Assembly: GCA_016932695.1 (NCBI GenBank)
Contig: JAFGCH010000119.1
Coordinates: 1 to 36,331 of the forward strand
Origin: Acidimicrobiia bacterium
GTDB taxonomy: Bacteria; Actinomycetota; Acidimicrobiia; Spongiisociales; UBA11373
Direction of reading: 5' to 3'
DNA length: 36,331 bases
The position numbers and the translations under genes were made by a program. The notes beneath the pieces were generated by a model. It was not told where the DNA came from, searched no databases, and saw nothing but the letters and a program-made list of their open reading frames with translations. How positions within the stretch are numbered: the stretch's first letter is position 1; every line of letters begins with the position of its first letter. Shown here in pieces: positions 12,987 to 27,332 of the stretch.

Positions 12987-15002
12987 TCACAACTCGCAGG
13001 ACTTCTCGTCCTCGCCCACGCAGGTGTCGGTACCGGCTCCGCCGTTCACAATGTCGGTGCCAGGGCCGCCGTCCAGTTCGTCGTTGCCCGCCTCGCCGAA
13101 GAGGCGATCGTTGCCGCCCCCACCGTCCAGCTGATCGTGGCCGTCGCCGCCGTAGATCCTGTCGGCTCCGGTGCCGCCCGCTACCTGGTCGTCGCCCCCT
13201 CCGGCGCAGACGGTGTCGTTGCCGCCGAGGGCGTCGATCTGGTCGTCTCCTCCGAAGGCCACGATCACGTCGGCCTTGGACGTGCCGCTGATCTCGTCGG
13301 CGTCACCCGAGCCCAGGATGGTCGCCGCCTTCCCGTTACAGGTGTGCATCGCCGGAGGGGCCCCCAGATCGAGGATGCCCTTGCCCGAGTCGTTGTCCAT
13401 TCCCTTGGGAGGAAGGTCCCGGGTGTGCGCCTTGATGGCCGCCCGCAACTGGGCCGGGGTGTAGTCGGGGAAGGCGGTCAGCAGCAGTGCGGCTGCGCCG
13501 GCCACGTGGGGCGCCGACGACGAGGTGCCGAAGAAGCCGCCCGGGTAACTGAAGCTGTCCGTTCCGTCGTAGCCGGCCACGTCGGGCTTCTTGGCCCCGC
13601 TCAGCGTCGGGCCGCGCGAGGAGAAGGGCTCCACCTGGCTGTTCTGCCAGAAGACCGCCCCCACGCTGAGCACCTTGGTCACGGTGGCGGCGTCGTTCAG
13701 GCTGTGGGTGGCCACCGGCGGATCCACCGGGTCCAGGAGCTGGGTGTTGGTAGGAAAGAAGAACACGTCGAGCTCCGGAGTACCCACCGTGCCCCCCACA
13801 GGGCCCTGGACGGCGATGTGATAGGTCTGCACCTCGCCGGTGGTGTTCTGGAACACCACGTGCTCCTTAGGCGGCTGGGTGCCGTCCTGCGGGTCGGTGG
13901 ACCAATCCACCGGGACCATCCCGCCTCCCTGGTACAGGAAGAGGTCCAGATTGTTGGTGGCTGCCGGCCACTCGTGCCAGCGCAGGTAGATGTCGGCGGT
14001 GGCGCCGTCGACCAGCTGAAAGCTGAACCCTTCATCGTGGGTGAAGAACTCGTGGACGCCGTCGGCGCCCCAGTCGTCGGTGTAGGGCCCGCCCCAGTGG
14101 TTGAGGGCGTAGTTCCCCGCCGAGTTGATCCAGGTGACCCCCTTCTTCTCCGCCTTGTTGGAGTAGCCCTTCAGGGTGCCCGTGCCGTCGCCCGGATAGG
14201 CGGCGACGAAGCCCAGCGAGGCGTTGAAGATGTCGATGCCGTTGGCTCCCATCCAGGTGATCGCCTTGGCGAAGTCGAGGCTGTTGTCGATGCAGACCAG
14301 CCACAGGTCGGCATCGGGGGCCAGGTCGTAGATCACCTCGGCCACCGCCGTGCCGTGCGGGGTCCCCCCGCCGGCCCCGTCCAGGCCGGCATCGCAGTAG
14401 TTCTTGGTCTTGAAGCCCGCCGGGAGGTCGCCGGCGCTCTTCGCCGCGGCGCGCCCCTCGAAACCGGAATCGACCACGGCAACGTCCACCCCCTGCCCGC
14501 GGAATCCGGCGGCATGCCAGTCGTCGGCATTCATGAGGGCCACGCCCTGGCTGGTGTGGGCCGCTTCCGGCAGCACCGGAGCGGGCGATTGCACCCACCA
14601 CACCGCGCGGCTCTCGCTCAAGCGGCGCAGGCTGCCCAGGGGCATCTCGGCGCCCACCATCCCGGGCGCCGTCGCCACCACCAGGCCGCCGGCGGCTCGC
14701 ACCGCGGCCGCCGCGGCGGCATCGTCGCCCGAGGTGAGGATCTCCACCTCGACACGGCCCCCGCGCACGAACAGGCGGCGATCCGTCGCCACCTGCATCG
14801 CCGCGTCCCGGCCCCCGGAGAGGAAGGCGTCCTCCAATGCAGCCAGGCCACCTTCGAGGTGCCCCGGGCCGTCCTTCGGCGCGTCGTACGGCGCGAAGTC
14901 CTGCCCCGTGCCCTCCGACCCAAACGCCGCTACGGGCAGGAGCGCCACCACCAGAAGCACCGCCAACAGGGCCAGGATCCTTCGGCCGTTCATCCGTTTC
15001 AC
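12987..15002 (-). CDS. Secreted subtilase (S8 family) with C-terminal RTX calcium-binding repeats
   Basis: A 671-residue exported serine protease. A signal peptide (about 1-29, hydrophobic ALLAVLLVVALLPVAAFG) is followed by a propeptide-like region, then the S8 catalytic domain: Asp178 in VAVVDSGFEG, His216 in TPHGTAVAEV, oxyanion Asn297 in NSAGN, and Ser494 in FGTSSSAPHVAG. A beta-sandwich-like insertion lies between the Asn and Ser motifs (about 320-425). Residues 555-671 are about eleven RTX nonapeptides (GGxGxDxLx) framed by Cys555, a Cys 44 residues later, and a terminal C-x7-C. GTG 15002 has GGGAGG five bases upstream. It is divergent from the first CapA-RTX gene (108 bp between starts). 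Probably calcium-stabilised and active outside the cell; substrate unknown. Confidence 0.9.
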   Translation of the reverse strand: MKRMNGRRILALLAVLLVVALLPVAAFGSEGTGQDFAPYDAPKDGPGHLEGGLAALEDAFLSGGRDAAMQVATDRRLFVRGGRVEVEILTSGDDAAAAAAVRAAGGLVVATAPGMVGAEMPLGSLRRLSESRAVWWVQSPAPVLPEAAHTSQGVALMNADDWHAAGFRGQGVDVAVVDSGFEGRAAAKSAGDLPAGFKTKNYCDAGLDGAGGGTPHGTAVAEVIYDLAPDADLWLVCIDNSLDFAKAITWMGANGIDIFNASLGFVAAYPGDGTGTLKGYSNKAEKKGVTWINSAGNYALNHWGGPYTDDWGADGVHEFFTHDEGFSFQLVDGATADIYLRWHEWPAATNNLDLFLYQGGGMVPVDWSTDPQDGTQPPKEHVVFQNTTGEVQTYHIAVQGPVGGTVGTPELDVFFFPTNTQLLDPVDPPVATHSLNDAATVTKVLSVGAVFWQNSQVEPFSSRGPTLSGAKKPDVAGYDGTDSFSYPGGFFGTSSSAPHVAGAAALLLTAFPDYTPAQLRAAIKAHTRDLPPKGMDNDSGKGILDLGAPPAMHTCNGKAATILGSGDADEISGTSKADVIVAFGGDDQIDALGGNDTVCAGGGDDQVAGGTGADRIYGGDGHDQLDGGGGNDRLFGEAGNDELDGGPGTDIVNGGAGTDTCVGEDEKSCEL

Positions 15003-15110
15003 ATCGGCCTCCCAGGTCAGTCGGCGCCAGTGTCGCAGGTTCACCGGCCCGAAGGTGCCGAGATCCGGGCAAGAGGCGGGTAGCGTGTGAGCCATCGACG
15101 AAGGAGGCTT

Positions 15111-16712
15111 GTGCGGGCCGCGCGGTATCGGGCGCTATCTCTGCTGCTCCTGCTGCCCGCCGCGCTGGCCCCCGCGGCGGCTGCAGAGGAGCCGCTGCGT
15201 TCCTTCACCATCGCCGCCACCGGGGACATCCTCATCCACGGCATGGTGGCCCAGGCGGCCGCGGCCTATGCCGGGGGCGACGGCTACGACTTCACTCCCA
15301 TGCTGGCCCCCACCGAGCCCTGGATCGCCGAGGCCGATCTCGCCATCTGCCACCTAGAGGGGAACCTCTCGCCGACCAACACCGGCCTCTCCTACTACCC
15401 GCGCTTCATCGGCCCCCGCGAGGTGGCCGAGGCTATTGCCGCCATCGGCTACGACACCTGCTCCCTGGCGGGCAACCACGCCCTCGACGGCGGCCGGCGC
15501 GGACTAGAGGACACCATCACCCTGCTCGAGGAGCAGGGCATCGCCCACGAAGGCACGGCGCGCAGTGAGGAGGAGCGCCTTCCCGGCTTCTACGAGGTGA
15601 AGGGAGTCAAGGTCGCCCACCTCGACTACACCTACGGCACCAACGGGCTGCCTCGCTCCGCCCCCTACGAGGTGAACATCATCGATCGCGACGCCATCCT
15701 CGCCGACGCCCGTTGGGCCCGGGAGCAGGGAGCCGAGTTCGTGATCCTCACCCTGCACTGGGGCATCGAGAAGCATCATCCCCCTACCGGCACCCAGGCC
15801 GCCCTGGCCGAGGAGCTGCTGGGCTCGCCCGACATCGACCTCATCCTGGGCAGCCACGCCCACGTGGTGCAGCCCGTCGATCGGGTGAACGGCAAGGTGG
15901 TCGTCTACGGCATGGGCAACCACCTCTCCAACCAGAACTCCATCTGGGGGCCGGACTACTACTCCACCGAAGACGGCCTGATGGTGCACCTGACGGTGAC
16001 CGAGCAGCCCGACGGCAGCTTCGCCACCACCCGAGTGCAGTACACCCCCACCCTGGTGGAGTTCCGCAGCTATCGGGTGCTTCCCATCGCCTGGGCATTG
16101 GCTGCGGGCGAGGGCGACCCGGCCCTGCTGCAAGCCTCCTGGGAGCGCACCGTGGCCAACGTCACCATGCTGGGCACCGAGGGCCTGGAACTCAGCCCGG
16201 CGGCCTGGGAGCCGCTCTCCTGCCGCGGGCTGGCGGCCACCGTGGTGGGCACCGCCGGCGACGACGTGCTGGTGGGCACCCCCGGCGACGACGTGATCGT
16301 GGGCCGGGGCGGCGACGACGTGATCCTGGGACTCGAGGGCAACGACCTGGTGTGCGGCGGTGACGGCGACGACGCCATCTGGGGCGGGGGCGGCTGGGAT
16401 ACCCTCTGGGGCGGGGAAGGAGCCGACGTCCTCTACGGCGGCACCGGGCGGGACCGCCTGTACGGCGAAGAGGGGAACGACACGCTGTGGGGCGGGCCCG
16501 ACGGCGACGCCCTGTACGGCGGCGACGGCGACGACACCCTGCTGGGCCATGAAGGAGACGACCTGCTGGTCGCCGGCCCTGGGATCGACCACCTGTGGGG
16601 CGGGTTCGGGGCCGACACGCTGATAGGGTTCGACCCGGACGACGCCCTGGTGGGTGACGGCACCGACACCTGCAAGATGGGTGCGCTGGTGGTCCCCTGC
16701 CGGGCCTCCTGA
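15111..16712 (+). CDS. CapA-family (PGA_cap) protein fused to C-terminal RTX repeats, copy 1
   Basis: A 533-residue exported protein: signal peptide (1-25, ALSLLLLLPAALAPAAAA), CapA/PgsA metallophosphatase-like domain (about 30-330) with Asp39 in ATGDILIH, HLEGNLSPTNTG, AGNHALDGG (121-123 GNH), TLHWGIE and GSHAHVVQPV, then a linker and about fifteen RTX nonapeptides from Cys371, ending C-x8-C. CapA proteins are linked to poly-gamma-glutamate capsules, but the superfamily covers diverse metallo-phosphoesterases; no capB/capC genes are nearby. GTG 15111 has AAGGAGG just upstream (spacing only 3) and a TAGCGT -10-like box at 15081-15086; GTG 15087 is an alternative. First of three paralogues. 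Confidence 0.85.
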   Translation: MRAARYRALSLLLLLPAALAPAAAAEEPLRSFTIAATGDILIHGMVAQAAAAYAGGDGYDFTPMLAPTEPWIAEADLAICHLEGNLSPTNTGLSYYPRFIGPREVAEAIAAIGYDTCSLAGNHALDGGRRGLEDTITLLEEQGIAHEGTARSEEERLPGFYEVKGVKVAHLDYTYGTNGLPRSAPYEVNIIDRDAILADARWAREQGAEFVILTLHWGIEKHHPPTGTQAALAEELLGSPDIDLILGSHAHVVQPVDRVNGKVVVYGMGNHLSNQNSIWGPDYYSTEDGLMVHLTVTEQPDGSFATTRVQYTPTLVEFRSYRVLPIAWALAAGEGDPALLQASWERTVANVTMLGTEGLELSPAAWEPLSCRGLAATVVGTAGDDVLVGTPGDDVIVGRGGDDVILGLEGNDLVCGGDGDDAIWGGGGWDTLWGGEGADVLYGGTGRDRLYGEEGNDTLWGGPDGDALYGGDGDDTLLGHEGDDLLVAGPGIDHLWGGFGADTLIGFDPDDALVGDGTDTCKMGALVVPCRAS

Positions 16713-16768
16713 GATCGCAATCACCCTCGGTCCACGAACGAACCAGCGCGCCCCACATGCCCCTCAGA

Positions 16769-16798
16769 ACGGGTGCCCGGCTCCTGCCGGGCACCCGT
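16769..16798. terminator. Bidirectional hairpin between convergent CapA-RTX and small RTX genes
   Basis: A perfect 13-bp stem ACGGGTGCCCGGC / GCCGGGCACCCGT with a TCCT loop, centred between the stops of two convergent genes (16712 and 16819). There is no long T tract on either side, so termination efficiency is uncertain. Confidence 0.65.
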
Positions 16799-16818
16799 CT
16801 CACCCGTCGCCGGGGCGT

Positions 16819-17148
16819 CTACGGCACCAGCTCGCAGCCGAGTGCGTCCTCGGCGTCGCAGAAGTCGCTGCCGCGGCCGCCGTAGGCTAGGTCGTCGCCG
16901 GGCCCGCCGATCAGGCCCCGGTTGCCGAGAGAGTCGTTGCCCCCCTCCCCGAAGAGCCAATCGTTGCCGCCCCCGCCTACGAGGCGATCGCGCCCCGGGC
17001 CACCGCAGAGCTTGTCGTTGCCCCCCATCCCGTTGATGGTGTCGTTCCCGCCACCGGCGGCTATGACATCGTCACCCGCCGTGCCCACGAGGATGTCGCG
17101 GCCGTCGGTCCCCTGGATGGTCGTATGCGCCGCGCCGCAGATCTCCAT
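16819..17148 (-). CDS. Small RTX calcium-binding protein, in frame behind the beta-domain gene
   Basis: A 109-residue protein made almost entirely of RTX nonapeptides (about nine), with Cys4, Cys48 (C-x43-C) and a terminal C-x7-C, the same cysteine frame as the subtilase and CapA-RTX modules. It has no signal peptide. Its ATG at 17148 follows immediately after the TAG stop (17149-17151) of the upstream secreted gene, in the same reading frame, and M-E-I-C aligns with A-M-H-T-C at the linker/RTX junction of the subtilase. Either it is restarted from the GGAG six bases upstream as a separate protein, or the TAG is a nonsense mutation (or read-through point) in an ancestral secreted fusion. Expected role: calcium-dependent folding or surface attachment. 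Confidence 0.8.
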   Translation of the reverse strand: MEICGAAHTTIQGTDGRDILVGTAGDDVIAAGGGNDTINGMGGNDKLCGGPGRDRLVGGGGNDWLFGEGGNDSLGNRGLIGGPGDDLAYGGRGSDFCDAEDALGCELVP

Positions 17149-17580
17149 CTAATTCTCCGGAGGCGGCTCGGTCTTCAGCTGCACCGTCAGGGTCTGGCCG
17201 GACGCCAGAGAGATCTTGTCCTGGAACGTCCAGTACAGCTTCAGCCGGGTCCCGGGGGTGAGGAACTCGCCGTTGGCGCAGTTCAAGTCGGACCCGCCGA
17301 TCCCGGTCGCCGCGTAGTAGTTGCTCCCTGCCGGGATGCCGTTGAACTTGGCCACGCCGCCGGGGCCGGTGCAGGCGTAGCGCGGCCCACCGGCGAACAG
17401 GAAGACCTCGACCCCGGCCAGAGGCTGGTAGACGCCTCCCGCATCCGGGTACATCACCTTCACCTTGATGGTCCCGGTGTCGCCTGCCTGCGCCGCGGTC
17501 GTGCCCAGCGCCAGCACGACCAGCAGCAGAGCCAGGATCACAAAGCGCGCCCGCCTTGCCGTCGACGTCGATGCCGGCAT
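17149..17580 (-). CDS. Secreted beta-sandwich (carboxypeptidase-regulatory/SdrD B-like) domain protein
   Basis: A 143-residue exported protein. Signal peptide about 1-32 (RRARFVILALLLVVLALG, cleavage near AQA-GD), then one prealbumin-like domain with the recurring GxPLAGVxV, a CTGPGGVAKFNGIPAG segment and a second Cys in DLNCANG, suggesting a disulphide. The end is a proline-rich linker TEPPPEN directly before TAG. ATG 17580 is set by GGGAGG six bases upstream. The downstream RTX gene begins at the very next codon in the same frame. Likely an extracellular adhesin-like or structural domain; no enzymatic residues seen. Divergent from CapA-RTX copy 2. Confidence 0.8.
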   Translation of the reverse strand: MPASTSTARRARFVILALLLVVLALGTTAAQAGDTGTIKVKVMYPDAGGVYQPLAGVEVFLFAGGPRYACTGPGGVAKFNGIPAGSNYYAATGIGGSDLNCANGEFLTPGTRLKLYWTFQDKISLASGQTLTVQLKTEPPPEN

Positions 17581-17688
17581 GGCGATCCTCCCTTCTCCGG
17601 ACAGTCCGCCGGGTACCCTCCCCCAACGGCACGATTCCTGGAATCTAGCCAAAGAGCAAGCCGGGTAACCGCCGCACCGGGATGCTCC

Positions 17689-17717
17689 TTGCGGCTACCC
17701 CGGCCGGTTCCTACGGT
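17689..17717 (+). promoter_or_regulatory. Promoter for leaderless CapA-RTX copy 2
   Basis: TTGCGG (17689-17694) and TACGGT (17712-17717) are separated by exactly 17 bp, matching a primary sigma promoter. The GTG start lies 6 nt after the -10 box, where transcription would begin, so the mRNA is probably leaderless; no ribosome binding site precedes the GTG. Confidence 0.6.
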
Positions 17718-17723
17718 TCTCCC

Positions 17724-19322
17724 GTGCGGCGGCAACTCGCCCTCGTCGCGACGGCACTCCTCCCAACGCTGGCCGCCCTGCCGGCCGCGGCGGCCCCGGC
17801 CGCGCGCTCCTTCACCATTGCCGCCACCGGCGACATCATCGTCCACCGGGCCATAGCCGACGCCGCCCGTATCGCCCCCGGACGCAACGTCTACGACTTT
17901 CGGCCGCTACTGCTCCCCATCGAGCCCTGGATCTCCGATGCCGACTTCGCCCTCTGCCACCTCGAAGGCACCCTCTCCCCCACCAACACCGGCCTCCTCT
18001 ACCAGCACGAGGACGAGCACCCCGCCTACTTCAACGGCCCGCACGAAATGGCCACCGCCCTGATGGCCACCGGTTACGACGCCTGCTCCACCGCCGGAAA
18101 CCACGCTCTCGACCGCGGCCTCACCGGCGTCACCGAGACCCTGGAGGTGCTCGACGCCGCCGGCCTAGGCCATGCGGGCACAGGCCGCGATAACGCCGAG
18201 CGAGAGCCCGTCCTCTACCAGGTCAACGGGGTGCGGGTCGCCCACCTGGCCTACACCCAGGGCACCAACGAGCCGCGCCCAACCGAGGCCCCCTGGGCGG
18301 TGAACGTCATCGACCGCGCCGCCATCCTGGCCGACGCCCGCCGGGCCCGCGAGCAGGGGGCCGAGTTCATCATGGTCAGCCTCCACTGGGGGACGGAGTA
18401 CCAGCAGGCCCTCGACACCTCCCAGACGAGCCTCGCTGCCGCTCTCACCGCCTCGCCCGATATCGACCTCATCCTCGGCCACCACACCCACCTGGTACAG
18501 AGCATCGCCCGGGTCAACGGCAAAGTGGTCGCCTACGGCCTGGGCAACCTGTTGTCCAACATCCGCACGGCGAAGGACGGCACCAAGGCCGGCTCCGAGG
18601 ATGGGGTGATCGTTCACTTGCGCGTCGAAGAGACGGAGAACAGCTTCACCGTCACCGAAGTCACCGTGACCCCCACCTGGGTGGACTGGCAGACCAAGCG
18701 GGCACTCCCGGTGGAGCACACCCTGGCCTACGGCGAGGGCGCGGTGCCCACCGCCGCCCTCCAGGCTTCCCGCGCCCACACCCTGAGGCGCGCCGGCACG
18801 CCGACCGCACTCTCGCCGACCCCGTGGCCCTCCCTGGTGTGCGCCGGCCGGGTGGCCTCCCTCGTGGGCACTGCCGGGCCCGACGTGCTGATGGGCACCC
18901 CGGGTGACGACGTCATCGTGGGCCGAGGCGGGGGCGACATCATCCTGGGAGGCGAGGGCGACGACCTTATCTGCGGGGGCAACGGCGCCGACCTCGTCTG
19001 GGGCGGCCCCGGCGCCGATTCGGCCTACGGAGACCACGGAGACGATTTGCTCTCCGGCGGCGACGGGCCGGACACGCTCCACGGCGGGAGCGGTGCCGAC
19101 CGCTTGGGCGGCGGCGAGTCGGCAGACAGCCTGTACGGCGGGGCGGGCGACGACCTCCTCTCGGGCCAGGCCGGGGGCGACGTCCTGGAGGCCGGCCCCG
19201 GCCGGGACCTCCTGCGCGGCGGCACCGGGGCGGACACCTTGGCCGGCCTGCCGGGCGATCGACTGCAGGGAGATGCCGCCGACTCCTGCCGGGTCATCGG
19301 AGTGGTTGCGCCCTGCGAGTGA
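17724..19322 (+). CDS. CapA-family (PGA_cap) protein fused to C-terminal RTX repeats, copy 2
   Basis: A 532-residue exported paralogue of the CapA-RTX gene at 15111. Signal peptide about 1-24 (LALVATALLPTLAALPAAAAPA); CapA domain with ATGDIIVHRA, HLEGTLSPTNTG, AGNHALDRG, LHWGTEYQ and GHHTHLVQSI; then a linker SPTPWPSLVC opening about fifteen RTX repeats with C-x43-C and terminal C-x8-C. GTG 17724 is chosen because the signal peptide begins there and a well-spaced promoter ends 6 nt upstream. The stop overlaps a potential GTG of the next paralogue (GTGA at 19319-19322), so copy 2 and copy 3 are probably one transcript. Metal-dependent hydrolase activity is inferred; substrate unknown. Confidence 0.85.
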   Translation: MRRQLALVATALLPTLAALPAAAAPAARSFTIAATGDIIVHRAIADAARIAPGRNVYDFRPLLLPIEPWISDADFALCHLEGTLSPTNTGLLYQHEDEHPAYFNGPHEMATALMATGYDACSTAGNHALDRGLTGVTETLEVLDAAGLGHAGTGRDNAEREPVLYQVNGVRVAHLAYTQGTNEPRPTEAPWAVNVIDRAAILADARRAREQGAEFIMVSLHWGTEYQQALDTSQTSLAAALTASPDIDLILGHHTHLVQSIARVNGKVVAYGLGNLLSNIRTAKDGTKAGSEDGVIVHLRVEETENSFTVTEVTVTPTWVDWQTKRALPVEHTLAYGEGAVPTAALQASRAHTLRRAGTPTALSPTPWPSLVCAGRVASLVGTAGPDVLMGTPGDDVIVGRGGGDIILGGEGDDLICGGNGADLVWGGPGADSAYGDHGDDLLSGGDGPDTLHGGSGADRLGGGESADSLYGGAGDDLLSGQAGGDVLEAGPGRDLLRGGTGADTLAGLPGDRLQGDAADSCRVIGVVAPCE

Positions 19323-19375
19323 CGAGGCGAAGCGCGCCTTGCCGGCCGCGGCGGCGTATACCCTGGGCCGGGCAG

Positions 19376-20995
19376 ATGAACCGTCACCTTCCCCGGCACC
19401 TCGCCTTGCTGGCCCTGGCGGCCGCCTTACTGCTTTCGCCCGACGGCGCCCGGGCGGACGGCCTGCGCTCCTTCTCGCTGAGCGCCGCCGGGGACATCCT
19501 CCTCCAACGGCCCATCGCCGATGCCGCCGAAGCCGCCCTGCCCGGAGAGGGCACCTACGACTTCACCTCGCTGCTGCGCGCCGTGGAGCCCTGGATCGCC
19601 GACGCCGACTTCGCCGTGTGCCACCTGGAGAGCACCCTCTCGGCCGACAACACCACCCTGCTGTACGACGAAAGCGGCTGGCCCCGCTTCAGCGGGCCCC
19701 ACGAGGTAGGGGCGGCGCTGGCGGCCGTCGGCTACGACGCCTGCTCCCTGTCGAGCAACCACGCCTGGGACCGCGGTTCAGCCGGCATCGCCGAGACCAT
19801 CGAGGTACTCGACCGCTACGGCATCCTGCACACAGGCACCGCCCGGGCCCCCGACGAGCGCCTGCCCGCCCGCTACGAGATCAACGGCGTCAGCGTGGCC
19901 CACATCTCCTACTCCACGGGGACCAACTTCCGGCCTCTCCCCGCCGGCGGGGAATGGGTGATGAACGTGATGGACCCCGCCGCCATCCTCGCCGACGCCC
20001 GCTGGGCCCGCGAACAGGGGGCCGAGTTCACCATCGTCAGCCTGCACTGGGGCACTCCCTACCAGGCGGCTCCCGATGGGCCCCAACTGGCCGTGGCGGA
20101 GGCCCTCACCGCCTCGCCGGACGTCGACCTGATCCTGGGCCACCATGCCCATATGGTCCAGCCGGTGACGTGGCTCCACGGCAAGCCGGTGGTTTACGGC
20201 ATGGGGGATCTGCTGTCGGGTCTCCACGGCGGGCCCTCCCGGGGCCCCGGTGCCGGCGACGGGATCATGGTGAACCTCACCGTGGCCGAGCAGCCCGGGG
20301 GAGGCTTCGCCGTGAGCGACCTGGCCGTCACCCCCACCTGGGTGGACCCCGCCACCAAGCGGGTGCTCCCCATCGACCACGTTCTCGCCGGCCGGACCGA
20401 CGGCACCCTCGCCTCCCTGCTGCGGGCATCGCGCGCTCTCAGCCTGGAGAGGATCGGCATGCTGGGGGGCGACGCGGCCGTCACTCCCACCCCCTGGCCC
20501 TCGCTGGGCTGCGCCGGGCGGACGGCCACCATCGCCGGTACCGCCGGGCCCGAGGTGCTCGTGGGGACCGCCGGTCCCGACGTCATCGTGGGCCGCGGGG
20601 GGGACGACCTCATCTTCGGCCTCGCCGGGGACGACCTCATCTGCGCCGGAGAGGGCAACGACACCGTGTGGGGCGGCCCGGGCCGGGACACCCTCTACGG
20701 GGAGGCCGGCCACGACCTGTTGTCGGGGGGCAGCGGCCCGGACCAGATCTTCGGCGGAGAAGGCTCGGACCGCCTCGGCGGCGGCGAAGGCGACGACCGC
20801 CTCTTCGGAGATGAGGGCGACGACGTCCTTTCGGGCCACGGCGGCGACGATCTCCTGGATGCCGGACGGGGTCGCGACATCCTCTGGGGCGGCACCGGCG
20901 CCGATCTGCTGATCGCCTCGTCGCCCGCGACGGTGCTCCGGGCCGATGCGGGGGATGCCTGCCGCCTCGAGGCCGCCGCCGTCTCCTGTCCCTGA
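19376..20995 (+). CDS. CapA-family (PGA_cap) protein fused to C-terminal RTX repeats, copy 3
   Basis: A 539-residue exported paralogue, closest to copy 2 in linker and repeat layout. Signal peptide about 1-24 (HLALLALAAALLLSPDGARA); CapA domain with AAGDILLQRP (Gln where copies 1 and 2 have His), HLESTLSADNTT (also changed), SSNHAWDRG, LHWGTPYQ and GHHAHMVQPV; then SPTPWPSLGC-like linker and about sixteen RTX repeats with C-x43-C and terminal C-x8-C. The substitutions suggest altered or relaxed activity relative to copies 1 and 2. ATG 19376 fits the signal peptide; an in-frame GTG at 19319 overlapping the previous stop would add 19 residues. A TATACCCT box lies at 19357-19364. Confidence 0.84.
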   Translation: MNRHLPRHLALLALAAALLLSPDGARADGLRSFSLSAAGDILLQRPIADAAEAALPGEGTYDFTSLLRAVEPWIADADFAVCHLESTLSADNTTLLYDESGWPRFSGPHEVGAALAAVGYDACSLSSNHAWDRGSAGIAETIEVLDRYGILHTGTARAPDERLPARYEINGVSVAHISYSTGTNFRPLPAGGEWVMNVMDPAAILADARWAREQGAEFTIVSLHWGTPYQAAPDGPQLAVAEALTASPDVDLILGHHAHMVQPVTWLHGKPVVYGMGDLLSGLHGGPSRGPGAGDGIMVNLTVAEQPGGGFAVSDLAVTPTWVDPATKRVLPIDHVLAGRTDGTLASLLRASRALSLERIGMLGGDAAVTPTPWPSLGCAGRTATIAGTAGPEVLVGTAGPDVIVGRGGDDLIFGLAGDDLICAGEGNDTVWGGPGRDTLYGEAGHDLLSGGSGPDQIFGGEGSDRLGGGEGDDRLFGDEGDDVLSGHGGDDLLDAGRGRDILWGGTGADLLIASSPATVLRADAGDACRLEAAAVSCP

Positions 20996-23918: not shown

Positions 23919-26900
23919 TTACCTCCCCCAGTACGCCCAGTTGCGCGCACGCACGTGGCGCACCTCCTCGGGCCAAGGGTGGAAGCGGCGAACCACCAGG
24001 TTGGTGACCCCGTCGCGGTGCTCTACCACCCCCTCGAGCACCACCCCCACCGAGCGGCGGGCCACCTCGCGATTGGCCTCCCACACCCCAGGGAGCACCA
24101 CCGCGTTCAATAGGCCGGTCTCATCCTCGAGGTTCAAGAAGATCACCCCCTTGGCCGTCATGGGGCGCTGGCGGTGGGTGATCAGGCCGCCCACCGCCAG
24201 CCGCCGCCCGTGCCGGCCGCCCAGCACCTCGGCGACGGTGAGGGCGCCGCGAGCGGTGAGCCACTCGCGGAGGAAGGACACGGGGTGGCGCACCGAGATC
24301 CCGGTGGCCCACAGGTCGGCGCGGGCCTCCTCTGCCACCGTCATGGGCGCCAGGCGGGGCGCTTCGGCCCCCTCGGCCAGAGGAAGGCGGTCCGGGCCCA
24401 TGCCGGCCAGGGCCCCCGCCGCCCACAGGCCCTCGCGTCGCTCCACCCCCAGGCTCGCCAGAGCCCCGGCAGCGGCCAGCCCCTCCAACCCCTCCACCTT
24501 CAAGCCGGTGCGCTGCGCCAGATCGACCACCCCGATGAACGGCCCGCCCACCAGGCGGGCCCCCTCGACACGGGTGATCTCCACATCGCCCAGTTCCCGC
24601 ACGTAGCGCAGCCCCAGGCGCACCGCCGTGGCCAGGCGCACCGGATCGTCGCGCAGGCCCCGCCCCCGGCGCCAGGTGAGCCCGGCCACGGTGACCGAGT
24701 CGTCCTCAGCGGCGGGCCAGGGGACGACGGTGCAGTCGAAGGCCGACTCGTTCACGTCGGGAGGCAGCACCACCACCCCGTGGCGCCGGGCGTCAGCCAC
24801 CAGCGAGTTCGGGGAGTAGAAGCCCATGGGCTGGGCATTGAGCAGGCCGGCCAGGTACTCGGCGGGCCAATGCGCCCGCAGCCAGGCCGACATGTAGACG
24901 ATGTAGGCGAAGGACACCGAGTGGCTCTCGGGGAAGCCGAAGGAAGCAAACCCCTGCAGCTTCTCCCAGATCTCGTCGGCGGCCTTCCCGGTGATCCCCC
25001 GGCCCGCCATGCCGGCGTAGGTCTCGGCCCGCAGCTTGGCCATCTCCTCGTCGGAGCGCTTGTGGGTCATCGCCTGACGCAAGCGGTCGGACTGCCCGGG
25101 GGTGTAGCCGGCGCAGACCCGGGCCAGTTCCATCAGTTGCTCCTGGAAGACCGGCACCCCCAGGGTCTTGGCCAGGATCGGCTCGGCCGCCGGATGGGGG
25201 TAGCGCACCTCCTCCTCGCCGTTGCGCCGGCGTAGGAAGGGGTGCACCGAATGGCCCTGGATGGGGCCGGGGCGGATGAGGGCCACCTCGATGGCCAGGT
25301 CGTAGAAAGTCTTCGGCTTCATGCGGGGCAGGGTGGCCATCTGCGCCCGCGACTCCACCTGGAAGACCCCTACCGTGTCGGCCCGGGTGAGCATCTGGTA
25401 GATAGCCGGCTCCTGGGGGATGGCGGCCAGGTCGAGGCGCACCCCGTGCACCTCCTCGACGGTGTCCACCGCCAGGTGCAGGGCGTTGAGCATCCCCAGG
25501 CCCAGCAGGTCGAACTTGACGATGCCCATGGAGGCGCAGTCGTCCTTGTCCCACTGCAGCACCGAGCGGTCCTCCATGCGCCCCCACTCCAGGGGGACCA
25601 CCTCCCAGAGCGGGCGGTCGGCGATCACCATGCCGCCGGAGTGGATGCCCAGATGCCGGGGGAAGCCGTCGAGGCGGCGGCAGGCGTCGAGGATGAGGCG
25701 GCCGCTGAGGCCGGCCGGCAGGTCCACGAACTCGGGGATGGCCTCGGGCCGGCGGGTGTCGAGGTACTTGGTCAGCCCGTTCACCTGCGCCTGGGTCAAG
25801 CCGAAGGCCTTGCCCACGTCCTGGAGCACGGAACGGGCCCGGTAGGTGATCACGTTGGCCACCATGGCCGCCCGCTCCCGCCCGTAGCGCTGGTAGCAGT
25901 ACTGGATGACCTCCTCGCGCCGCTCCGCCTCGAAGTCCACGTCGATGTCGGGGGGCCTGCCCCGCTCCGCCGAGAGGAACCTCTCGAAGGGCAGGCCGAG
26001 GCGGATGGGATCGACGCGAGTGACCCCCAGGCAGCGGCACACCGCCGAGTCGGCGCCCGACCCCCGGATCTGGCAGTAGATGCCCTGCTCCCGGGCGAAG
26101 CGGACGATGTCCCACACCACCAGGAAGTAGCCGGGGAAGCCCAGGTCGCCGATCACCCCCAGTTCGTGCTCCAGGCGGGCCCGGGCAACCGGGTCGACGG
26201 CCCCCGGCCCCTCGCCCGGGTACACCTCCCGAGCGCCTTCCAAGACCAGGTGGCGCAGGTAGTCCATCTCATCGCGGAAAGCGCCCGGCATGGGGAAATC
26301 GGGGAGGCGGGGAGCCACCAGGCGCAAGTCGAAGGCCAGGGCCTCCCCCAGGTCGGCGGCTCGGGCCACCGCCCCCGGATAGCGGGCCAGGCGACGGGCC
26401 ATCTCCTCGGGCGCCTTCAGATAGCGCTCGTCGGTGGCGGGCCAGAAGCCGTGGCCCTCCTCCAGGGAACGGCGGCCCCCGACGGCGGCGAGCACCTCGG
26501 CCAGGTCGGCCTGGGAGCGGTCGTGGTAGTGCACGTTGTTGGTGGCCACCACGGGCAGGCGCAGGCGGGCGGCCACCTCGGCCAGCAGGTCGTTGCGCGG
26601 GTCGTCCTCCGGCATACCGTGGTGCCATATCTCCACGAAGAGGCGCGCCGGAAACACCTCACGCAAACGGGCGGCGGCCCGCATCGCCCCCTCCAGGTCG
26701 CCCTCCTGGGCCGCTCGGGGCACCGCCCCCTGCCGGCACCCGGTAAGCGCTACCAAGCGCCCGGCGGCCGACGCCTCCGACAGGTCTTCCCAGGAGTAGA
26801 CCGGGCGGTCCTTCTCCCCCCGGAACTGGGCCCGGGTGACCAGGCCGCTCAGGGCGGCGTAGCCCGCCGGGTCGGGAGCGAGCAGCACCAGATGGTCGGT

Positions 26901-27332
26901 GGCACACCGACGAGTCGGCTTGGCCCCGTGCATACGGTGAGTACGGCCGCGGGGTCTCTCTAGTGCCTCCCCCGCGGACGCGGGGGAGGCGCGGCCGGCG
27001 GAGCCGGCCGCGGAGGGGGCAAGACCGCGCCCCGCCTCCGTCGCGCCTTTGCCCTCCCCCCAACCCTCTCCCGGCGAAGCCGGGAGAGGGCGCGAGGCCT
27101 CCCTCCCCTCCCCCTCTAGCGGCATCCCCACCTCCGTCCCGTACACCGTTTTCAACCCCGTCTCCGCGGCGGCCAGGCGGAAGCGCGGCGCGCCGTAGAA
27201 ACCGTGGTGGTCGGTCAGGGCCAAGCCGGTGTATCCCAGTTCCGCCGCCCGCTGCACCAAGTCACCGGGAGACGATGCCCCGTCGAGGAAGGAGAAGTTG
27301 CTGTGGCAGTGCAACTCGGCGTAGCGGGCCAT
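23919..27332 (-). CDS. dnaE2: Error-prone DNA polymerase III alpha subunit DnaE2
   Basis: A 1137-residue C-family DNA polymerase. The N-terminal PHP domain opens HCHSNFSFLDGASSP with LTDHHGFYGAPRF; the polymerase core has RGSGADSAVC (423-432) and the catalytic PDIDVDF (461-467), then WDKDDCASMGIVKFDLLGLG and GFPESHSVSFAYIVYMSAW; a C-terminal OB-fold (GLITHRQRPMTAKGVIFLNL) follows. Sequence and length match DnaE2, the SOS mutasome polymerase working with ImuA/ImuB, not replicative DnaE1. No imuA/imuB in the window. A perfect LexA box lies 19 bp upstream, so DNA-damage induction is expected. Residues 72-124 contain a 52-residue low-complexity insertion encoded by a hairpin-rich repeat; without it the protein is 1085 residues, the usual length. 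Confidence 0.93.
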   Translation of the reverse strand: MARYAELHCHSNFSFLDGASSPGDLVQRAAELGYTGLALTDHHGFYGAPRFRLAAAETGLKTVYGTEVGMPLEGEGREASRPLPASPGEGWGEGKGATEAGRGLAPSAAGSAGRASPASAGEALERPRGRTHRMHGAKPTRRCATDHLVLLAPDPAGYAALSGLVTRAQFRGEKDRPVYSWEDLSEASAAGRLVALTGCRQGAVPRAAQEGDLEGAMRAAARLREVFPARLFVEIWHHGMPEDDPRNDLLAEVAARLRLPVVATNNVHYHDRSQADLAEVLAAVGGRRSLEEGHGFWPATDERYLKAPEEMARRLARYPGAVARAADLGEALAFDLRLVAPRLPDFPMPGAFRDEMDYLRHLVLEGAREVYPGEGPGAVDPVARARLEHELGVIGDLGFPGYFLVVWDIVRFAREQGIYCQIRGSGADSAVCRCLGVTRVDPIRLGLPFERFLSAERGRPPDIDVDFEAERREEVIQYCYQRYGRERAAMVANVITYRARSVLQDVGKAFGLTQAQVNGLTKYLDTRRPEAIPEFVDLPAGLSGRLILDACRRLDGFPRHLGIHSGGMVIADRPLWEVVPLEWGRMEDRSVLQWDKDDCASMGIVKFDLLGLGMLNALHLAVDTVEEVHGVRLDLAAIPQEPAIYQMLTRADTVGVFQVESRAQMATLPRMKPKTFYDLAIEVALIRPGPIQGHSVHPFLRRRNGEEEVRYPHPAAEPILAKTLGVPVFQEQLMELARVCAGYTPGQSDRLRQAMTHKRSDEEMAKLRAETYAGMAGRGITGKAADEIWEKLQGFASFGFPESHSVSFAYIVYMSAWLRAHWPAEYLAGLLNAQPMGFYSPNSLVADARRHGVVVLPPDVNESAFDCTVVPWPAAEDDSVTVAGLTWRRGRGLRDDPVRLATAVRLGLRYVRELGDVEITRVEGARLVGGPFIGVVDLAQRTGLKVEGLEGLAAAGALASLGVERREGLWAAGALAGMGPDRLPLAEGAEAPRLAPMTVAEEARADLWATGISVRHPVSFLREWLTARGALTVAEVLGGRHGRRLAVGGLITHRQRPMTAKGVIFLNLEDETGLLNAVVLPGVWEANREVARRSVGVVLEGVVEHRDGVTNLVVRRFHPWPEEVRHVRARNWAYWGR
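26958..27119. mobile_element. 156-bp hairpin-rich palindromic element inserted in frame within dnaE2
   Basis: Three perfect hairpins: 26966-26989 (10-bp stem, GGAC loop), 26990-27012 (10-bp stem, GGA loop), and 27064-27090 (12-bp stem CCCTCTCCCGGC, GAA loop). The block is bracketed by direct repeats CTCTAG at 26958-26963 and 27114-27119, exactly 156 bp (52 codons) apart, which looks like a target-site duplication. Excising one unit joins the flanking DnaE2 codons in frame at a shared Leu-Glu. There are no terminal inverted repeats or transposase, so it would be non-autonomous. It resembles in concept the Rickettsia palindromic elements that insert within genes, but not necessarily in sequence. 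Confidence 0.65.

What the first reader, a model, noticed from the sequence alone, without database searches (positions are those of the whole stretch)
12987..20995. Five linked RTX proteins share one cysteine-framed C-terminal module on three different N-terminal domains
A subtilase, three CapA-family proteins and a small beta-domain partner all carry the same RTX block: first Cys, exactly 43 residues, second Cys, a run of nonapeptides, then a terminal C-x7-C (subtilase, small protein) or C-x8-C (all three CapA). The spacing is identical in all five, though the nonapeptides vary. RTX repeats bind calcium; paired cysteines in exported proteins usually form disulphides. The module behaves like an interchangeable attachment or folding cassette. 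RTX proteins with terminal cysteines occur in other actinobacteria, so the novelty is the clustering and fusion to CapA. No type I secretion ABC/HlyD genes are present; each large protein has a Sec-type signal peptide instead.
Basis: partly seen in the sequence, partly recalled or inferred. Interest (0 to 1): 0.85.

Follow-up and report, generated by a model that had tools for sequence, protein, structure and literature searches.

The report
Cysteine-framed calcium-repeat module on secreted enzymes

Summary
The cysteine framing is real: all five RTX blocks have C-x43-C, then C-x7-C (subtilase, small ORF) or C-x8-C (three CapA). Two points were missed. The small partner is not one protein: an in-frame TAG (17149-17151) separates its beta domain from its RTX ORF, while three homologues are continuous. 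And the module is not peculiar to the cluster: 27 ORFs found in this genome carry it (C-x43-C in 22), with many partner domains, and 56 of 149 sampled phylum genomes match it. The CapA fusion is old (12 of 14 family genomes; the only module found in two); the subtilase is absent from the one same-genus genome. New here: the first two cysteines behave as a pair. Of 178 informative modules 174 have both, 3 neither, 1 one; a second class has both elsewhere, Cys2 exactly 18 residues (one beta-roll turn) earlier. The terminal pair is less strict. With no HlyD match and a VKOR gene, I read it as a Sec-exported, calcium-folded, disulphide-stapled domain aiding folding and surface retention of enzymes. 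Pairing, calcium binding and retention are untested.

The parts
12987..14993 (-). Subtilase (PF00082) with C-terminal RTX module; likely start at the internal ATG (MNGRR...) ahead of a hydrophobic leader (start judged by eye)
   Evidence: ORF 12987-15095; Pfam E 4.3e-25; no match in the same-genus genome at E 1e-8
12990..13340 (-). RTX module of the subtilase, Cys1 to last codon: C-x43-C, repeats, C-x7-C
15087..16712 (+). CapA1-RTX: CapA domain (PF09587, calcineurin-like fold in the model) and RTX module
   Evidence: syntenic orthologue in G209
16221..16709 (+). RTX module of CapA1: C-x43-C, repeats, C-x8-C
16819..17148 (-). 109-aa RTX-only ORF without signal-peptide-like start: C-x43-C, repeats, C-x7-C
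17149..17151 (-). In-frame TAG between the beta-domain ORF and the RTX ORF
   Evidence: three homologues continuous
17149..17580 (-). Beta-domain ORF with signal-peptide-like start (143 aa); 38% identical over 104 aa to the N-terminal part of an intact RTX protein elsewhere in the genome
   Evidence: no Pfam match at E 1
17682..19322 (+). CapA2-RTX
   Evidence: orthologue in G209
18840..19319 (+). RTX module of CapA2: C-x43-C, repeats, C-x8-C
19319..20995 (+). CapA3-RTX; ORF overlaps the CapA2 stop by 4 nt, likely start at an internal ATG at 19376 (by eye)
   Evidence: orthologue in G209, cut by its contig end
20510..20992 (+). RTX module of CapA3: C-x43-C, repeats, C-x8-C
23919..27332 (-). 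dnaE-type polymerase gene (label recalled from the sequence, no family search), recurrent neighbour of the CapA gene; not part of the system
   Evidence: within about 3 kb of CapA in the window and in 7 of the 13 other family genomes

Best explanation
The block is a portable RTX beta-roll domain for Sec-exported proteins, not a type I secretion tail. After export it binds calcium and folds. A disulphide between Cys1 and Cys2 staples the N-terminal end of the roll; where a terminal pair exists, Cys3 and Cys4 close the other end. The folded roll protects the attached catalytic domain and keeps it at or near the cell surface. In this family the core user is a CapA-type calcineurin-fold metalloenzyme, probably an extracellular phosphoesterase or hydrolase rather than a poly-glutamate capsule enzyme. 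The window holds three CapA-RTX paralogues (CapA2-CapA3 probably co-transcribed) with a subtilase-RTX that the one same-genus genome lacks, and a small beta-domain-RTX gene interrupted by a stop. Shown: architecture, spacing, conservation, co-occurrence and joint shift of Cys1/Cys2, predicted fold of the CapA domain, no HlyD and no CapC match. Inferred: the disulphides, calcium binding, surface retention, the enzymatic reaction.
For: Cys1/Cys2: of 178 informative modules (181 less 3 cut by contig ends) 152 have the first arrangement, 22 the second, 3 neither, 1 one only. In the second class Cys1 moves from -18 to -13 and Cys2 from +26 to +8 relative to the conserved GT. The modelled roll has a strand every 9 residues; that 18 residues make one turn is established RTX knowledge (recalled). 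Terminal pair near the array end: 55 of 76 family modules, spacing 7 in 31 and 8 in 16. Portability: 67 module ORFs with trypsin, M23, subtilase, deacetylase, SpoIID, YkuD, VanW, SLT and other domains, before or after the module. Export: no HlyD match, VKOR present. Fold: MslH Z 30.6 over 298 residues, 5'-nucleotidases about 17. Seven of eight functional MslH residues (PMC10406935, passages) align by hand to residues invariant in the window CapA proteins. CapC: no match. Replacement: CapA relatives of sister family f6 carry SLH (PF00395) in the two scanned, where family f1 carries RTX.
Against: No coordinates, so no cysteine distance; the strand register of the model alone does not put Cys1 beside Cys2 unless the cap folds back. 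The phylum rows came from the top of a ranking made with a profile that has both cysteines, so cysteine-free modules are under-sampled. The joint shift could be one ancient event inherited widely. The terminal cysteines are not strictly paired: 15 of 181 modules show a single one and 46 none near the array end; the G057 CapA has none and one G016 CapA has C-x4-C. G008 and G207 have the CapA without RTX. Only two of the five structure models were good (mean pLDDT 83, 82, 70, 68, 58). Retention rests on analogy with SLH. CapB was not searched for.
Confidence: 0.45

Rival explanations
1. Ordinary RTX tails: calcium-binding repeats common in Actinomycetota, with the cysteine spacing kept only by common descent of the module, no special pairing or function.
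For: Module matched in 56 of 149 phylum genomes; RTX genes already predicted in six actinobacterial genomes without type I secretion homologues (PMC3034196, passages).
Against: Cys1 and Cys2 both present or both absent in 177 of 178, and both moved in the second class, while most other cap positions vary.
Confidence: 0.28
2. The cysteines form intermolecular bonds, so the modules cross-link different exported enzymes into a calcium-dependent surface lattice or complex; clustering would reflect joint assembly.
For: 18 or more module matches in 7 of 14 family genomes; weak profile match to the RTX part of S-layer protein RsaA (E 0.002-0.003).
Against: In G031 and G208 (76% complete) the CapA module is the only one found at E 1e-6. 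The window's subtilase is not conserved in the genus.
Confidence: 0.12
3. The five genes are a functional unit in which the subtilase processes the CapA-RTX proteins.
For: Adjacency; subtilase and CapA1 are divergent with overlapping ORF starts.
Against: In the same-genus genome G209 CapA1 is followed on that side by the abhydrolase-like gene with no subtilase between, and no subtilase match is found at E 1e-8.
Confidence: 0.06
4. The RTX DNA is a recombination cassette that homogenises and shuffles ends between genes.
For: In G209 CapA1 and CapA3 share at least 126 identical nt starting 15 nt before Cys1, up to the contig ends, in otherwise much more divergent genes.
Against: Within G000 no two different RTX genes share an exact match of 26 nt or more once overlapping ORFs of the same DNA are set aside; elsewhere only 26-30 nt (4 pairs in G209, 2 in G057). 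Identity at contig ends of a metagenome assembly may be an artefact.
Confidence: 0.09

Closest known systems
RTX (repeats-in-toxin) domains, Pfam PF00353
   Same: Glycine/aspartate nonapeptides, predicted strand every 9 residues, profile matches to solved RTX domains
   Different: Framed by cysteines, on proteins with signal-peptide-like starts, no HlyD match in the genome; the reviewed RTX lipases of subfamily I.3 and RTX S-layer proteins are described as lacking cysteines (PMC3034196, passages)
CapA / PGA_cap family (PF09587), nearest solved structure lasso-peptide epimerase MslH
   Same: PF09587 far over cut-off in all three; model matches MslH at Z 30.6 over 298 residues; catalytic and metal residues mostly kept
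   Different: C-terminal RTX, signal-peptide-like start, no CapC match in the genome; MslH's His261 position is a glycine; reaction unknown
SLH-bearing exported enzymes
   Same: CapA relatives of sister family f6 bear SLH domains (two of two scanned), a surface-binding domain on the same enzyme
   Different: RTX instead of SLH, C-terminal instead of N-terminal; wall binding by this RTX is untested

Membership tests
RTX domain (PF00353) | Nonapeptide repeats scoring over the curated cut-off | tested here: met
   All five window modules over cut-off
RTX domain (PF00353) | Parallel beta-roll fold | tested here: inconclusive
   Predicted strands every 9 residues, mostly with block pLDDT near 90, in CapA1; RTX lipases and CyaA RTX among Foldseek matches at E 2e-4 to 3e-3; no coordinates examined
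RTX domain (PF00353) | Calcium binding | not testable with these tools
   Inferred from the repeats
Type I secreted RTX exoproteins | Type I secretion genes (HlyD-type adaptor) in the genome | tested here: not met
   TIGR01843: 0 matches in the genome, 95.5% complete; control rings in 13 of 14, over cut-off in 1; ABC and TolC not searched
Type I secreted RTX exoproteins | No cleavable N-terminal signal peptide | tested here: inconclusive
   Signal-peptide-like starts seen by eye in the sequences; no predictor run
CapA / PGA_cap (PF09587) | Domain over cut-off with calcineurin-like fold | tested here: met
   E 3e-58 to 6e-63; model to MslH Z 30.6
Poly-gamma-glutamate capsule system | CapC partner (PF14102) | tested here: not met
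   0 matches in the genome; control rings in 1 of 14, Bacillus subtilis
Poly-gamma-glutamate capsule system | CapB ligase partner | not tested
   No search run
Disulphide-stapled module (as proposed here) | Cys1 and Cys2 co-conserved and co-shifted | tested here: met
   Of 178: 174 both, 3 neither, 1 single; sampling favours cysteine-bearing modules
Disulphide-stapled module (as proposed here) | Cys3 and Cys4 co-conserved | tested here: inconclusive
   Of 181: 120 a pair, 15 a single, 46 none near the array end
Disulphide-stapled module (as proposed here) | Cysteines within bonding distance | not testable with these tools
   Model given without coordinates

The most novel reading that the evidence does not exclude
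Actinomycetota have turned the RTX beta-roll from a type I secretion tail into a Sec-compatible extracellular domain by adding an N-terminal disulphide clamp. The clamp exists in two registers that differ at Cys2 by exactly one turn of the roll, and the module is used as a general surface appendage that stands where sister lineages have SLH on the same enzyme.
Probability: 0.35. Interest if true: 0.65.

Novelty: new variant of a known kind. Interest (0 to 1): 0.5.

Why it matters
RTX repeats are known mainly as calcium-triggered parts of type I secreted proteins of Gram-negative bacteria. A cysteine-framed form spread over a phylum, here in a genome without an HlyD match, would help explain how RTX proteins fold and stay put after Sec export, and the two cysteine registers make the staple directly testable by mutagenesis. 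The C-x43-C mark also groups a large set of exported enzymes, including a conserved CapA-RTX.

Tried and rejected
TAG recoding: the small gene is split by TAG, and four CapA matches in family f6 were listed with one TAG inside. Reading them showed that this TAG is the ordinary stop at the end of CapA, and other window genes end in TAG, so recoding was dropped.

A conserved five-gene unit: rejected. The same-genus genome has no subtilase match. The beta protein has matches in 3 of 59 order genomes (that draw did not include the same-genus genome, whose L142 carries an intact homologue). Whether the subtilase was gained here or lost there is open: 6 of 14 family genomes, this one included, have a subtilase relative, about 39-46% identical in the others.

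Poly-glutamate capsule: not favoured, no CapC match. Genome-wide module recombination: little support, one long tract in the sister genome only. Cysteine distances: not possible, no coordinate file. Rfam scan of the window: nothing over gathering score. Plasmid collection: 36 records with CapA relatives; in the 15 rows listed the match ends at query residue 349 at the latest, i.e. before the RTX repeats. Open-access literature searches met no description of such a module (listings only); most subscription papers are not covered.

Rows dropped before counts: two ORFs without an anchor (L151, L165; both show cysteines on both sides by eye), 3 ORFs under 40 bits, and duplicates of the same core. 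The assignment of L017, L024 and L232 to the first arrangement, and of L107, L206 and L234 as cut, was made by eye from the printed rows.

Mistakes corrected: protein 4, two queries and the comparison were in a wrong frame; redone. The labels in the tree count G045, G206 and two cut G209 rows as without RTX because of a crude motif count; searches show the module there, and in the family only G008 and G207 lack it. The terminal-pair counts take the first close pair anywhere after Cys2 and can pick cysteines of a following domain; I use for totals. The script ended with an error on its last locus after printing the rest.
Full report
What is in the window. The window is one contig of a 2.44 Mb, 95.5% complete genome in 161 contigs, 71% GC. 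Four of six CapA relatives found in named genome contigs come from records titled Actinomycetota bacterium, two from Streptomyces without RTX. The small 'partner' is two ORFs: the beta-domain ORF ends in TAG and the RTX ORF starts with ATG at the following codon. Homologues L019, L142 and L152 are continuous, so the window copy is an interrupted gene, a sequencing error, or a gene recently split; the RTX half alone has no signal-peptide-like start.

The module is genome-wide. A profile of 24 N-terminal caps from this genome has both cysteines invariant, but the 24 were chosen partly by having them. In the window and the stretches taken 79 ORFs of 13 genomes match; Cys1-Cys2 spacing is 43 in 65, 42 in 3, 45 in 3, 44 in 2, 39 and 40 in one each, not assigned in 4. 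In the window's own genome 22 of 27 have 43. Partner domains in the 67 ORFs of G000, G209 and G057 include CapA 7, trypsin 6, M23 4, carboxypeptidase-regulatory-like 4, deacetylase 2, SpoIID 2, Excalibur 2, and single YkuD, VanW, SLT and subtilase (25 of 28 families shown). In G000 the module lies at the C-terminus or has up to 617 residues after it. The window patch is the one with most module ORFs in G000 (five in 8 kb); C46 has three in about 3 kb, C2 and C15 two each.

The CapA fusion is old, the cluster is not conserved. All 14 family genomes have this CapA and 12 have the module on it; G008 and G207, sister rows in the tree, do not. In G031 and G208 (76% complete) the only module found at E 1e-6 is the one on CapA. 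Thirteen of 15 complete CapA modules end in C-x8-C. The 18 family rows form one supported group (100/96), with CapA1, CapA2 and CapA3 of the window each pairing with its counterpart in the same-genus genome. A dnaE-like gene lies near CapA in the window and in 7 of the 13 other family genomes; it was not in the stretches taken from the other six, some of them cut short by contig ends. In G209 the aligned CapA1 segment and the aligned abhydrolase-murF-ddl segment (labels recalled) are 212 nt apart where the window has 2.3 kb with the subtilase, and no subtilase relative is found at E 1e-8. In the order sample of 59 genomes the module is matched at E 1e-8 in all 9 family genomes and 9 of 50 others: one match in six of these, 2 and 3 in two, 32 in G040; some short matches may be plain RTX repeats.

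Sister families put other things on the same enzyme. None of the 20 CapA relatives fetched from families f3, f4, f6, f7 and f8 has RTX after the domain. Of the seven scanned, the two f6 proteins have SLH domains before CapA (E 4e-11 and 6e-8), the five of f4, f7 and f8 have no further Pfam match. This is why I favour surface retention, but it is an analogy.

The cysteine pair. I aligned 181 modules (76 from the family, 105 from a phylum sample) on the conserved GT. In the family cysteines pile up at -18 (66) and +26 (74). In the phylum sample they pile up at -18 (64) and +26 (77), and separately at -13 (19) and +8 (22). Setting aside 3 rows cut by contig ends, 152 have the first arrangement (three of them outside my position bins because of an insertion or deletion), 22 the second (19, plus 3 whose upstream cysteine is at -17 or -22), 3 neither, 1 a lone upstream cysteine. 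No row joins the second Cys1 to the first Cys2 except L017, which has a deletion. The second class is in 11 genomes of three families, 7 of which also have the first in my sample. The Cys2 shift is 18 residues; the CapA1 model has a strand every 9 residues, so 18 is one turn of the roll. This is the pattern expected of a bonded pair. Limits: the phylum rows are the best-scoring ones of a longer, capped list, the profile rewards cysteines, and the two classes may be only two inherited states. The terminal cysteines are looser: 120 of 181 modules have a pair near the array end, 15 a single cysteine, 46 none, some of these cut; in the phylum sample the commonest spacing is 11 (23 modules), in the family 7 (31) and 8 (16).

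Function of CapA. The best model (mean pLDDT 83, pTM 0.70; the five models range from 58 to 83; nine sequences in the alignment) matches lasso-peptide epimerase MslH at Z 30.6 over 298 residues, then 5'-nucleotidases at about 17. The MslH paper (passages only) names Glu44, Asn87, His259, His261 as calcium ligands and His88/Asp91, His295/Asp11 as catalytic dyads. By hand count on the alignment, whose second part is weak (9 bits), and the N-terminal GD motif for Asp11, seven of the eight correspond to residues invariant in the three window proteins and in nine sequences; the His261 position is a glycine. So the enzymes look active; the reaction is unknown. No CapC match. Two further cysteines of the CapA domain are invariant in the nine sequences.

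Export. No HlyD match; [quoted passage not shown] The 2010 RTX review (passages) reports RTX genes in six Actinobacteria without significant type I homologues, and RTX lipases and S-layer proteins without cysteines.

Verdict. The larger finding is a cysteine-framed RTX module found across the phylum, with an old CapA fusion and a co-shifting cysteine pair. I call it a new variant of a known kind, interest 0.5.

Noticed in passing
L107 and L108, first 127 nt (G209): CapA1 and CapA3 of the same-genus genome share at least 126 identical nt from 15 nt before Cys1 to the contig ends; possible gene conversion or assembly artefact.
   Followed up: partly
L109:6026-7222 (G057) and L115:5146-6537 (G016): An RTX-module protein that looks like an L,D-transpeptidase lies near the CapA-RTX gene in both genomes; a YkuD match is counted once among the 67 ORFs, which include the G057 but not the G016 protein.
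   Followed up: partly
L033:1-800: Upstream of CapA2 in the same-genus genome lies a protein that looks like an HNH/DUF222 endonuclease (label recalled, no search) where the window has the small beta/RTX genes.
   Followed up: no
window:15087-20995: Two cysteines inside the CapA domain are invariant in nine sequences and are visible in printed proteins of other families of the order; probably another disulphide.
   Followed up: no
L043, L044, L045, L047 and L049: CapA relatives of family f8 carry a long N-terminal stretch of 259-312 residues with a repeat-like motif; the two scanned have no Pfam match there.
   Followed up: partly
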